29,676 bases of DNA from a virus. Numbering within the stretch: the stretch's first letter is position 1; the number at the start of each line of letters is the position of its first letter. Made by a program: the position numbers and the translations under genes. Shown in pieces: positions 1 to 3,160 of the stretch. The stretch covers positions 1 through 29,676 of the IMG/VR virus record IMGVR_UViG_3300030419_002675, one strand, 5' to 3'. Below the pieces are notes generated by a model. That model was not told where the DNA came from and searched no databases. It worked only from the letters and a program-made list of their open reading frames with translations.

Positions 1-60
1 AGCGAGCGTATTATAACACGAACGCCCGAAAACTACAAGACCCTCGGTAATACTTTGTAA
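1..60 (+). CDS. Possible 3' end of an upstream gene, cut by the window edge
   Basis: Frame 1 is open from the window start to a TAA at 58-60 and would give a 19-residue C-terminus ending KTLGNTL. Frame 3 is also open to a TAA at 48-50, so the reading frame is uncertain. The stop in frame 1 lies inside the left arm of a perfect inverted repeat (50-85), as would fit the end of a gene. No function can be given from so short a fragment, and it may not be coding. Confidence 0.25.
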   Translation, partial: SERIITRTPENYKTLGNTL

Positions 61-116: not shown

Positions 117-145
117 TTGACAGTTTTCCACAGAGGACTTATAAT
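117..145 (+). promoter_or_regulatory. Consensus sigma-70-type promoter for the gene at 176
   Basis: TTGACA at 117-122 and TATAAT at 140-145 are separated by exactly 17 bases, a perfect bacterial housekeeping promoter. The predicted start is near 152, giving a leader of about 24 bases. AGGGG at 162-166 lies 9 bases before the ATG at 176. Early genes of T4-like cyanophages are thought to be read by unmodified host polymerase, which fits this site. Confidence 0.8.
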
Positions 146-1693: not shown

Positions 1694-1722
1694 TTGACAC
1701 TATACATATATCAGTGTATAAT
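1694..1722 (+). promoter_or_regulatory. Consensus sigma-70-type promoter for the glycosyltransferase unit
   Basis: TTGACA at 1694-1699 and TATAAT at 1717-1722 are separated by exactly 17 bases, the second perfect match in the window. The predicted start is near 1729, only about 17 bases before the ATG at 1746. AGGA at 1731-1734 serves as a ribosome site at the very 5' end of the message. The unit runs from here to the terminator at 3130-3155. Confidence 0.82.
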
Positions 1723-1745: not shown

Positions 1746-2549
1746 ATGGCAAAAGGATTTACTGTAAAGGCAAATGCTCCTAAGAAGAAAGCACCTGATT
1801 GGGACTATGATGCCATTAAAGCAAGAATGAAAGGTAAGACGATTGTATTTTGTCTTCCTGGTCGTGGATGTTCTTACATTTTTCTGAAAAACTTTGTGCA
1901 GTTATGCTTTGATATGGTTCAGAATGGTATGTCTATCCAGATATCCCAGGACTATTCATCAATGGTTAACTTTGCACGTTGTAAGTGTTTAGGTGCAAAT
2001 GTATTGAGAGGTCCTAAGCAAATACCTTGGGATGGTAAACTTAAGTATGATTATCAACTATGGATTGACTCAGATATTGTCTTTGACACTAATAAGTTCT
2101 GGCAATTATGTGATATGGCAATCCCTGCAGAGTCAGTAAATGAAGATGGAAGTACTAATGAGGAAGTATTAGAAAATCGTGCAATTGCTGCCGGTTGGTA
2201 TGCTACAGAAGATGGAAGCACTACCTCTGTGGCACATTGGTTAGATGAAGAGGATTTCCGTAAGAATGGCGGAGTTATGAATCATGAAACCGTCGAAAGT
2301 ATCTCGAAACGTAAGAAGCCTTTTACAGTTGATTACACTGGATTTGGTTGGTTATTAATTAAGAAGGGTGTATTTGAGAAACTTGAGTATCCTTGGTTTG
2401 CTCCTAAGATGCAAGTCTTTGAAAGTGGGCAGGTTCAAGATATGTGCGGCGAAGACGTATCCTTCTGCTTAGATGCAAAAGAGGACGGTTATGAAATCTG
2501 GTGCGATCCTCGGATTAGGGTAGGTCACGAAAAAACTCGCATCATTTAA
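1746..2549 (+). CDS. Probable GT-A fold glycosyltransferase, 267 aa
   Basis: After a basic N-terminal tail (about 25 residues) the chain enters KTIVFCLPGRG, a Rossmann-like first strand. A helix follows, then a strand ending WIDSDIVF, where D108-S109-D110 is a DXD motif that in GT-A enzymes binds the metal and nucleotide sugar. Later come YTGFGWLLIKKGVFE, G235-E236-D237 in CGEDVSFC (position of the acceptor or base residue in family 2-like enzymes) and GHEKT at 260-264. T4-like phages use such enzymes to modify DNA, virions or host surface sugars; the substrate here cannot be told. It is the first gene of a promoter- and terminator-bounded unit. A catalytic role is inferred from motif order; an inactive relative is possible. 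Confidence 0.65.
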   Translation: MAKGFTVKANAPKKKAPDWDYDAIKARMKGKTIVFCLPGRGCSYIFLKNFVQLCFDMVQNGMSIQISQDYSSMVNFARCKCLGANVLRGPKQIPWDGKLKYDYQLWIDSDIVFDTNKFWQLCDMAIPAESVNEDGSTNEEVLENRAIAAGWYATEDGSTTSVAHWLDEEDFRKNGGVMNHETVESISKRKKPFTVDYTGFGWLLIKKGVFEKLEYPWFAPKMQVFESGQVQDMCGEDVSFCLDAKEDGYEIWCDPRIRVGHEKTRII

Positions 2550-2551
2550 CA

Positions 2552-2725
2552 ATGGGCGTTTTTGGAAGTAAGCATCCGGATTTTTCTCTTAAAACTGATG
2601 AACAACTCTGGTATGAAATAGCAGAGAACCTAACTGAACTTAAAAATAGAGATTCAGTTGAATATAGGGTAACCGCCTCTCGTGACTCGGTAAAGAAAAA
2701 ACTTGAAGAACTTGATTTATTATGA
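2552..2725 (+). CDS. Small hypothetical protein, 57 aa
   Basis: The ATG is 2 bases after the glycosyltransferase stop, and 57 codons end at TGA 2723-2725. The product starts MGVFGSKHPDF and is then mostly helical and charged (DEQLWYEIAENLTELKNR, then SVKKKLEELDLL), so a short helical hairpin or coiled coil is likely. Its stop overlaps the start of the next gene as ATGA (2722-2725), a classical translational coupling junction. Tight packing on both sides supports it. I do not recognise the family. Confidence 0.7.
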   Translation: MGVFGSKHPDFSLKTDEQLWYEIAENLTELKNRDSVEYRVTASRDSVKKKLEELDLL

Positions 2726-2805
2726 TTTACGTTATTCTCAGTCTATTATTAATTGTTAGTATTGTTACTTTATACTATATGTTTAAATACAATCCACATA
2801 CATGA
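2722..2805 (+). CDS. Membrane micropeptide, 27 aa
   Basis: The ATG at 2722 overlaps the previous stop (ATGA), and the TGA at 2803-2805 overlaps the next start (again ATGA at 2802-2805). The 27 residues are almost entirely one hydrophobic helix, IYVILSLLLIVSIVTLYYMF, followed by a short polar tail KYNPHT. This is the form of a single-span inner-membrane peptide. The double ATGA overlap is strong evidence that it is translated. Phage membrane micropeptides can affect lysis timing, superinfection or membrane proteins, but nothing points to one role. It is too small for normal gene calling. Confidence 0.6.
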   Translation: MIYVILSLLLIVSIVTLYYMFKYNPHT

Positions 2806-2990
2806 CCAAATTATACAATATTAAATTTAAAACTGATATTTTGCATAGTCGTTTAACTGCTGAAGAGGCAGCAGATAAGTTACAGGACTATGCAGATAAG
2901 TTTTATGCCCAAAAAGATGACCCAAATGCATGGCCATTTGACCCACAAGACCTAACTATGGAGGAAATTATCGATGCCGGTCAGAATTAA
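2802..2990 (+). CDS. Small hypothetical protein, 62 aa
   Basis: It starts by ATGA overlap with the membrane peptide gene and ends at TAA 2988-2990, overlapping the next gene by 17 bases. The protein begins with a beta strand (KLYNIKFKTD), then a helix SRLTAEEAADKLQDYADKFY, then an acidic, Pro-containing tail ending LTMEEIIDAGQN. The strand-helix pattern suggests a small compact fold, but I do not recognise it and see no catalytic motif. A GGAGG for the next gene lies inside its last third. Confidence 0.72.
   Translation: MTKLYNIKFKTDILHSRLTAEEAADKLQDYADKFYAQKDDPNAWPFDPQDLTMEEIIDAGQN
2960..2964 (+). promoter_or_regulatory. Ribosome binding site GGAGG
   Basis: GGAGG ends 9 bases before the ATG at 2974 and lies within the preceding gene. 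It fixes the start of the 50-residue basic protein and implies coupling of the two genes. Confidence 0.7.
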
Positions 2991-3126
2991 GCAAGGATCA
3001 TGGGGATCTTCGCAATTTATAGAATCAATTCCGAAAAAAACTCGTCAGGGAGAAGGCAAACATACAAAATATGCCGCGAGTTCTCGTAATCATGCAAAGA
3101 AAAAGTATCGTGGACAAGGAAAATAA
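2974..3126 (+). CDS. Small basic cyanophage-type protein, 50 aa
   Basis: The ATG follows GGAGG at 2960-2964, and 50 codons end at TAA 3124-3126. The protein is very basic and polar: KKTRQGEGKHTKYAASSRN, then KKKYRGQGK. This K-T-R-Q-G ... R-G-Q-G-K pattern matches a tiny protein I recall as widespread in T4-like cyanophages and usually left as hypothetical. Composition suggests nucleic-acid binding or a disordered tail-like peptide, which is inference only. It is the last gene of the unit that starts at 1694 and is followed at once by an intrinsic terminator. Confidence 0.75.
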   Translation: MPVRIKQGSWGSSQFIESIPKKTRQGEGKHTKYAASSRNHAKKKYRGQGK

Positions 3127-3129
3127 CTC

Positions 3130-3155
3130 AAAGGGCGGAAATAACGCCCTTTTTT
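3130..3155 (+). terminator. Intrinsic terminator of the glycosyltransferase unit
   Basis: AAAGGGCG at 3130-3137 pairs with CGCCCTTT at 3145-3152 around a 7-base loop, and the T-run continues to 3155. It begins 3 bases after the stop of the small basic protein and separates the early-type genes from the late structural cluster. Confidence 0.88.
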
Positions 3156-3160
3156 AATGT

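What the first reader, a model, noticed from the sequence alone, without database searches (positions are those of the whole stretch)
2552..3126. Four-gene micro-cassette with a hidden 27-residue membrane peptide
Genes at 2552, 2722, 2802 and 2974 are joined by ATGA, ATGA and a 17-base overlap with an internal GGAGG. The second is a single hydrophobic helix of 27 residues. With the glycosyltransferase 2 bases upstream, they form one coupled early unit that could act together on the host envelope.
Basis: partly seen in the sequence, partly recalled or inferred. Interest (0 to 1): 0.55.

Follow-up and report, generated by a model that had tools for sequence, protein, structure and literature searches.

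The report
Hidden YNPH membrane micropeptide of cyanophages
Between known genes of ocean viruses that infect photosynthetic bacteria lies a conserved, unlisted 27-residue gene for a probable membrane-crossing peptide, which different viruses keep at different places in their genomes.

Summary
Four ORFs of 57, 27, 62 and 50 codons lie at the stated places, joined by ATGA, ATGA and a 17-base overlap; a GGAGG lies just before the last start. A consensus sigma-70 promoter (1694-1722) precedes the glycosyltransferase-like gene, and a terminator (3130-3152) follows the fourth ORF.

The 27-residue peptide is a real gene. Relatives form a family of about 25-32 residues: one hydrophobic helix ending in YNPH. 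It is under purifying selection (pooled pN/pS 0.33; shifted frames 0.84 and 1.82). It is unannotated in the records of cultured P-TIM68 and P-SSM2, and no Pfam, PHROGs or NCBIfam model covers it.

The "four-gene micro-cassette" is not a fixed unit. The glycosyltransferase and the 50-codon gene are the stable ends of a variable small-gene slot. The 57-, 27- and 62-codon genes come and go in it: 46 of 84 distinct 57..50 segments lack the peptide. The peptide also sits at other sites, such as a psbA-side slot and P-SSM2 57787-57873, without those neighbours.

Best reading: an accessory membrane micro-effector, translated by coupling here, probably made early, and acting on a host membrane partner rather than with its neighbours. 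The partner is unknown. Joint action on the envelope is unsupported.

The parts
1694..1722 (+). sigma-70 consensus promoter TTGACA-N17-TATAAT of the unit; inverted repeat TATACA (1701-1706) / TGTATA (1715-1720) overlaps the -10
   Evidence: 12 of 12 consensus bases; best site 10-12 of 12, 50-54 nt before the start, in 78 of 78 loci examined (window plus 77 relatives), shuffled mean 8.0. The inverted repeat was seen by eye.
1746..2549 (+). glycosyltransferase-like protein (267 aa, phrog_1574; relatives are called T4-GC 102 in named records), stable upstream end of the slot
   Evidence: phrog_1574 E 2.8e-115; remote relative L195 passes the Pfam GT2 cut-off, 24.0 against 23.3 bits; DxD, ED and H columns invariant in 10 rows; T4-GC label
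2552..2725 (+). 57-codon gene; accessory; predicted two-helix protein
   Evidence: 109 related open frames at E < 1e-3 in 165 sequences, copies not removed; AlphaFold2 mean pLDDT 78, helices 16-34 and 44-53; no PDB fold match
2722..2805 (+). 27-codon gene: single hydrophobic helix ending YNPH(T); ATGA start coupling; no Shine-Dalgarno sequence of its own seen
2802..2990 (+). 62-codon gene (weak phrog_3252 relative), accessory; ATGA start coupling; its 3' end encodes the ribosome-binding site of the next gene
   Evidence: phrog_3252 E 7.5e-4; GGAGG kept in 28 of 36
2960..2964 (+). GGAGG inside the 62-codon gene, likely ribosome-binding site for the 50-codon gene
   Evidence: sequence; conservation
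2974..3126 (+). 50-codon basic protein (phrog_516), stable downstream end of the slot
   Evidence: phrog_516 E 4.3e-23; matched in 442 phage records, all named Synechococcus, Prochlorococcus, Cyanophage or Marine
3130..3158 (+). intrinsic terminator closing the unit (stem 3130-3152, then T run)
   Evidence: a perfect-stem terminator after this gene in 32 of 76 loci listed, window included (my count of the listing)

Best explanation
The 27-residue ORF is a real accessory phage gene for a one-pass membrane micropeptide of an uncatalogued cyanophage family (about 25-32 residues, hydrophobic helix, C-terminal Y/F-N/D-P-H/N). Here it lies in a five-gene unit behind a host-type sigma-70 promoter, so it is probably made early, and it is translated by stop-start (ATGA) coupling to the gene before it. 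Because the family also occurs away from the glycosyltransferase and the 57-, 62- and 50-codon genes, at other genome sites with other start signals, its partner is most likely a host membrane protein or complex. I infer that it inserts N-out/C-in, docks by its helix, and presents the YNPH end at the cytoplasmic face as a small regulatory subunit. Shown: selection on the coding frame, family, modular distribution, promoter motif. Inferred: translation, expression time, membrane insertion, topology, host partner.
For: Coding: 38 of 84 distinct 57..50 segments carry it. In the other 46 no hydrophobic ORF of 20-45 codons was found, and the gap is at most 44 nt except in five (158 nt) that hold the 62-codon gene. 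Pooled pN/pS is 0.33 against 0.84 and 1.82 in shifted frames, and the Y, N, P and H codons vary synonymously. A profile built from the members leaves a gap between them plus one new copy, L077 (E 3e-4 or better), and everything else (0.03 or worse) in the loci then held. Early: sigma-70 sites in 78 of 78 against a late-type motif before gp25 in 66 of 79 (late motif in 10% of shuffles). Published passages link sigma-70 motifs with early and NATAAATA with late cyanomyovirus genes (PMC2984593, passages). Independence from neighbours: seven slot combinations in 120 loci. In pattern scans blind to gene context, 84 of 99 new loci hold a family ORF; of 77 distinct ones 48 are in this slot, 18 at psbA-side sites, 7 in other small-gene clusters and 4 unplaced. 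Cultured phages: P-TIM68 between glycosyltransferase and 50-codon gene; P-SSM2 57787-57873 in an unannotated gap. Topology: 23 of 36 aligned members have K or R within two residues before the motif, and none has a charged residue further upstream.
Against: No transcript, ribosome-profiling or peptide data were found. The peptide prefers company with the 57-codon gene in the GT-selected set (13 of 22 with it, 3 of 51 without; Fisher p 2e-6, relatedness not corrected), so a partnership with that gene in this slot is possible. Early expression may be local to this slot. At the endonuclease/glutaredoxin-flanked sites the sigma-70 score is only 9-11 (shuffled mean 7.9) and a late-type motif is present in 16 of 16 (shuffled 7%); in the five clustered loci the score is 7-8, no better than shuffled; the psbA-adjacent locus has 12 of 12. 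In 12 of 78 loci the glycosyltransferase promoter spacer itself holds a late-type motif. Fourteen named phages score 12 (4), 11 (3), 10 (6, one at another position) and 8 (1), with no shuffled control there. The three pattern scans required YNPH, so they do not test that motif independently. Single members reach nominal matches (DUF2964 E 4e-4, phrog_33949 E 2e-3), so a distant catalogued relative is not excluded.
Confidence: 0.5

Rival explanations
1. The peptide is a membrane anchor or partner of the 57-codon protein (or of the glycosyltransferase) and the coupled genes build one complex at the host membrane.
For: Strong co-occurrence with the 57-codon gene in the GT-selected set, 13 of 22 against 3 of 51; ATGA coupling in 28 of 38; P-TIM68 has the peptide overlapping the end of the glycosyltransferase gene by one base.
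Against: The 57-codon gene lacks the peptide in 46 of 84 segments. Peptides exist in the slot without it (L004, L033, L067, P-TIM68) and away from the glycosyltransferase and 50-codon gene at other sites.
Confidence: 0.2
2. It is a membrane-damaging peptide: a small holin-like lysis factor or a type-I-toxin-like depolarising peptide.
For: Size and a single hydrophobic helix fit that class in general (recalled). At the endonuclease/glutaredoxin-flanked sites a late-type motif lies just before the start in 16 of 16 loci.
Against: Sigma-70-type promoter in this slot. No charged residue in the helix of 36 aligned members, and a conserved C-terminal motif that a mere pore-former would not be expected to need (inference). 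No holin or toxin model among the matches; PADLOC was not searched.
Confidence: 0.12
3. It is a phage-made extra subunit or mimic of a small subunit of a host photosynthetic or respiratory complex (photosystem, cytochrome, NDH or KdpF/CydX-like class).
For: Right size and one helix. One site follows psbA directly (L249), and of 17 loci with endonuclease- or glutaredoxin-like neighbours, 6 show the end of psbA upstream on the same contig. Weak single-member matches fall in this class (1 of 36 each: CcoQ 0.015, KdpF 0.08, CydH 0.1, PsbN 0.18), but equally weak ones fall elsewhere.
Against: No significant match to any such family or to solved chains. Most distinct copies (48 of 77) lie in the glycosyltransferase slot.
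Confidence: 0.18
4. The hydrophobic frame is a by-product of composition and gene packing, not a translated gene.
For: Five other short plus-strand frames of the window pass the same hydropathy cut-off. tblastn of the window peptide, with its low-complexity filter on, finds nothing in 50,697 phage records.
Against: Purifying selection in this frame and not in the shifted ones, presence or absence as a whole, recurrence at several sites, some with a ribosome-binding site of their own.
Confidence: 0.03

Closest known systems
Small-gene hot spot between gp46 and gp25 of cyanomyoviruses (Sullivan et al. 2010, PMC3037559)
   Same: Same neighbourhood, before gp25; small genes, mostly of unknown function
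   Different: The passage read describes genes found only in Synechococcus-isolated phages and does not name this peptide; only passages were read
phrog_1574 / GT-A glycosyltransferases (GT2-like)
   Same: DxD and later ED and H columns; remote relative over the Pfam GT2 cut-off
   Different: Own protein matches no Pfam family at E 1; substrate unknown; the peptide is not obligately linked to it
phrog_516 (50-codon gene) and phrog_3252 (62-codon gene)
   Same: Direct family matches, strong and weak respectively
   Different: Both of unknown function; they occur without the peptide in many loci
Bacterial one-helix accessory subunits (KdpF, CydX/CydH, CcoQ, cyanobacterial PSII small subunits; class recalled)
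   Same: Size, single helix
   Different: No significant sequence match; C-terminal YNPH; copies seen so far are in phage sequence, but host genomes were not searched for it
phrog_33949 and DUF2964
   Same: Best nominal matches of single members (2 of 17 at E 1.8e-3; 1 of 17 at 4.1e-4)
   Different: The window's own peptide matches neither; after allowing for the number of members scanned these are marginal; both are of unknown function
Phage small proteins that reprogram hosts (review PMC11323111, abstract and outline read)
   Same: Under 100 residues
   Different: The abstract covers lifestyle and gene-expression regulators; nothing seen there on this peptide

Membership tests
YNPH micropeptide family (defined here) | ORF of about 25-32 codons with one hydrophobic helix | tested here: met
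   27 aa, 17-residue hydropathy maximum 2.8
YNPH micropeptide family (defined here) | C-terminal Y/F-N/D-P-H/N within a few residues of the stop | tested here: met
   ...FKYNPHT; P invariant, Y, N and H in at least 90% of 36 rows (rows from the pattern scans were chosen with YNPH)
YNPH micropeptide family (defined here) | Purifying selection in frame | tested here: met
   pooled pN/pS 0.33 over 16 pairs, shifted frames 0.84 and 1.82
   57, 27 and 62 together before the 50-codon gene in 15 of 120 distinct loci; seven combinations in all
Early transcription unit | Conserved sigma-70 promoter in front and terminator behind | tested here: met
   Promoter 10-12 of 12 in 78 of 78, weaker in some named phages; terminator in the window and in 32 of 76 loci, window included, by a strict rule
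Early transcription unit | Transcript present early in infection | not testable with these tools
   no expression data held
GT-A glycosyltransferase (1746-2549) | Family profile match | tested here: inconclusive
   Own protein: none in Pfam; phrog_34859 glycosyltransferase E 1.5e-5; relative L195 over the GT2 cut-off
GT-A glycosyltransferase (1746-2549) | GT-A fold | tested here: inconclusive
   AlphaFold2 model mean pLDDT 43, not usable
Host small complex subunit | Sequence match to a known small subunit | tested here: not met
Host small complex subunit | A relative encoded in cyanobacterial genomes | not tested
Holin or type I toxin | Family match | tested here: not met
   (PADLOC not searched)
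Holin or type I toxin | Membrane permeabilisation | not testable with these tools
   needs experiment

The most novel reading that the evidence does not exclude
Cyanophages carry a dispersed, unannotated one-helix micropeptide whose YNPH tail docks onto a conserved cytoplasm-facing site of a host photosynthetic or respiratory membrane complex, so that the phage adds its own removable subunit to the host's energy machinery. Phages keep it at whichever promoter slot is at hand, including beside psbA.
Probability: 0.18. Interest if true: 0.85.

Novelty: new member of a known kind. Interest (0 to 1): 0.55.

Why it matters
A conserved gene is missing from the annotation of well-studied cyanophages, including P-SSM2 and P-TIM68, and no model of the family libraries searched here covers it, so omics studies built on those annotations cannot see it. 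Its spread over several genome sites suggests a common need in infecting marine cyanobacteria. It is small enough to synthesise, tag and test directly. If its partner is a host membrane complex, it would give a handle on how phages retune host energy metabolism.

Tried and rejected
Direct tblastn of the 27-mer and the 62-mer against phages gave nothing, so relatives had to be reached through the neighbouring genes and then through DNA patterns. The search for related loci with the peptide alignment confirmed only 4 of 133 pattern stretches, probably because tblastn is weak on 27 residues. The 50-codon gene as a relative of T4 UvsY.-2: no alignment. Glycosyltransferase fold: model too poor to search; no PDB sequence match. 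The 57-codon gene: no PDB fold match. Host origin of the glycosyltransferase: the 7 genome contigs confirmed among 57 pattern stretches are in bins of unrelated phyla at 74-86% identity, which I read as cyanophage contigs in mixed bins. Two copies in one virus: none of 20 further viral records had more than one match; 11 of 20 had one at E 0.1, three of those only partial. The peptide was not searched in cyanobacterial genomes: the one genome-contig scan had gone to the glycosyltransferase and no cyanobacterial handle was at hand. A Prochlorococcus-phage preference (2 of 3 Prochlorococcus against 0 of 17 Synechococcus/cyanophage records at E 1e-3) is suggestive only: S-B05 is a partial record, the first look may miss short hits, and S-SCSM1 and P-HM2 gave weak partial matches (E 0.015-0.04) that I did not count. 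G+C of the loci does not separate carriers from non-carriers (34.7% in 34, 35.7% in 85). Published expression of this unit: none seen in the listings (most listed papers not read). Naming of the peptide in print: none seen in the listings.

Full report
Setting. The window is a 29.7-kb IMG/VR virus record with gp25- and gp6-like baseplate genes just after the finding (gp6 by position and by the named relatives); its gene order is that of T4-like cyanophages. All four ORFs, the two ATGA overlaps and the 17-base overlap are as described; the GGAGG lies just before the overlap. I see no clear Shine-Dalgarno sequence before the 57-, 27- or 62-codon gene; the 50-codon gene has GGAGG nine bases before its start. 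The simplest reading is stop-start coupling at the two ATGA junctions and separate initiation for the last.

The transcription unit. A sigma-70 site with 12 of 12 consensus bases lies at 1694-1722, before the glycosyltransferase-like gene, and a terminator at 3130-3152 after the 50-codon gene (in that scan the number of promoter-like sites over 5 kb, 20, equals the shuffled mean of 19.9, so it is the perfect score and its conservation that count). In the window plus 77 of 80 relatives (three had under 130 nt upstream; some loci are copies) the best site scores 12 in 42, 11 in 33 and 10 in 3, with the -35 element 50-54 nt before the start; shuffled sequences average 8.0. Before gp25 the score is 7-10, and a late-type motif is present in 66 of 79, against 10% of shuffles. 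Early cyanomyovirus genes have been linked to sigma-70 motifs and late genes to NATAAATA, with some genes carrying both, though sigma-70 motifs were not found in S-RSM4 (PMC2984593, passages seen). Twelve of the 78 have CTAAATA inside the spacer. Fourteen named phages score 12 (4), 11 (3), 10 (6, one at another position) and 8 (1), without a shuffled control there. So an early unit is likely, and a mixed early/late one in some relatives; no expression data were seen.

The slot. Glycosyltransferase and 50-codon gene are the stable ends. Over 120 distinct loci, drawn from searches with the glycosyltransferase and with the 57-codon family and so not a random sample, the space between holds: nothing recognised 29, 57 alone 35, 62 alone 19, 57+27 17, 57+27+62 15, 27 alone 3, 57+62 2. 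On a quick glycosyltransferase tree the fewest changes for presence of the peptide are 7 (support values not examined, no shuffled comparison). The region belongs to a published small-gene hot spot (between gp46 and gp25, PMC3037559, passages). In the glycosyltransferase-selected set alone, 73 distinct loci have the 50-codon gene (5 duplicates and 2 loci without it dropped); 16 carry the peptide, 13 of them with the 57-codon gene. In that set two loci without the peptide (L029, L031) hold other hydrophobic ORFs that do not end in YNPH, and L001 and L002 have a second hydrophobic frame overlapping the peptide gene.

The peptide is a gene. Of 84 distinct 57..50 segments, 38 carry a hydrophobic ORF of the family; in the other 46 no hydrophobic ORF of 20-45 codons was found, and the gap is too short for the gene or holds the 62-codon gene. 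Twenty-eight of 38 start by ATGA on the gene before. Sixteen disjoint pairs give pooled pN/pS 0.33; the same sequences read in the shifted frames give 0.84 and 1.82. The four C-terminal residues use alternative synonymous codons, so the motif is kept as protein. In 23 of 36 aligned members K or R lies within two residues before the motif and no member has a charged residue further upstream, which points to a cytoplasmic C-terminus by the positive-inside rule (inference).

The family lives elsewhere too. Three DNA patterns, blind to neighbours but requiring YNPH, were run over IMG/VR. They matched 103 stretches, 4 of them loci already held; of the 99 new loci, 84 hold a family ORF and 15 do not. 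Of 77 distinct ones, 48 lie in this slot (many on contigs already seen), 17 beside an endonuclease-like and/or a glutaredoxin-like gene (6 of them with the end of psbA upstream on the contig), 1 directly after psbA, 5 in small-gene clusters (sorted by a helicase-like gene or a GGAG before the start; one of them, L235, also lies 3.5 kb upstream of a glycosyltransferase), 2 at 1.6-1.8 kb upstream of the glycosyltransferase, and 4 unplaced. Gene labels there are by eye, except that annotated records name the matching stretches photosystem II D1 and endonuclease. At the endonuclease/glutaredoxin-flanked sites the best sigma-70 score is 9-11 (shuffled mean 7.9) and a late-type motif is present in 16 of 16 usable loci (shuffled 7%); the psbA-adjacent locus has 12 of 12; the five clustered loci score 7-8, no better than shuffled. 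In P-HM2, psbD is followed by the same downstream gene (T4-GC 162) with no annotated gene between.

Named phages. Profile search of 23 whole records gives hits at E 1e-3 or better in P-TIM68, P-SSM2 and the single-cell record AG-345-O18; 17 Synechococcus/cyanophage records, P-HM2, AG-345-E15 and T4 have none. In P-TIM68 the ORF overlaps the end of the glycosyltransferase gene by one base and is followed at once by the 50-codon homologue (by eye); it is not annotated. In P-SSM2 it fills the gap between PSSM2_073 and PSSM2_073.1 (57787-57873), about 13 kb before the glycosyltransferase, after GGAGGAG, and is not annotated. P-SSM5 is 99.8% identical over 432 bases there, and a stretch of AG-345-L05 aligns over nearly exactly the peptide gene alone.

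Neighbours. The 57-codon protein is predicted as two helices. The 62-codon gene encodes the ribosome-binding site of the next gene near its end (GGAGG in 28 of 36; in MEEI/LEEI codons by eye).

Mechanism. Since no phage neighbour accompanies the peptide everywhere, the constant partner is most likely of the host (a phage core protein is not excluded). A one-helix peptide with a conserved tail fits a regulatory or accessory subunit of a membrane complex better than a pore-former. Searches against Pfam, PHROGs, NCBIfam and the PDB gave no family-wide match; the best single-member ones are DUF2964 (4e-4, 1 of 17), phrog_33949 (2e-3, 2 of 17) and Loki-CTERM (6e-3, 2 of 36), and the best PDB E-value is 0.4. 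The partner, topology and time of expression remain inferred.

Verdict on novelty. Small membrane proteins of phages are a known kind; this family was not seen in the listings and has no model in the libraries searched. The finding deserves a corrected title: a conserved, movable cyanophage micropeptide inside a variable slot, not a four-gene cassette.

Noticed in passing
window 117-145 and 805-833: Two further strong sigma-70 sites (12 and 11 of 12) upstream of other small ORFs.
   Followed up: no
window 1701-1720: Inverted repeat TATACA/TGTATA between and over the promoter elements, possibly an operator (by eye).
   Followed up: no
L007, L008, L012, L018, L022, L029, L031, L035-L038, L067 upstream of the glycosyltransferase: Late-type CTAAATA placed inside the sigma-70 spacer, an overlapping early/late promoter.
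   Followed up: partly
L167, L168, L169, L170, L172, L175, L181, L182: The glycosyltransferase-to-gp25 interval also hosts metabolic genes: purM, CP12, 2OG oxygenase, tryptophan halogenase, ferredoxin.
   Followed up: no
P-SSM2 PSSM2_073; L067; L213; L282: A small protein of the form MLV-L-KDEL...VCTCKE (T4-GC 69 in P-SSM2) recurs beside or near the YNPH peptide, by eye.
   Followed up: no
L029, L031: Other hydrophobic ORFs, one of 29 residues ending ADPNKM, sit in the same slot without YNPH.
   Followed up: no
L187-L193: Genome bins labelled as archaea, Chlamydiae, Bacteroidetes-type or Gammaproteobacteria carry what look like cyanophage contigs.
   Followed up: no
endonuclease/glutaredoxin-flanked loci such as L200, L210, L263: CTAAATA ends about 10 bases before the peptide start, so a late transcript would be nearly leaderless.
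   Followed up: no
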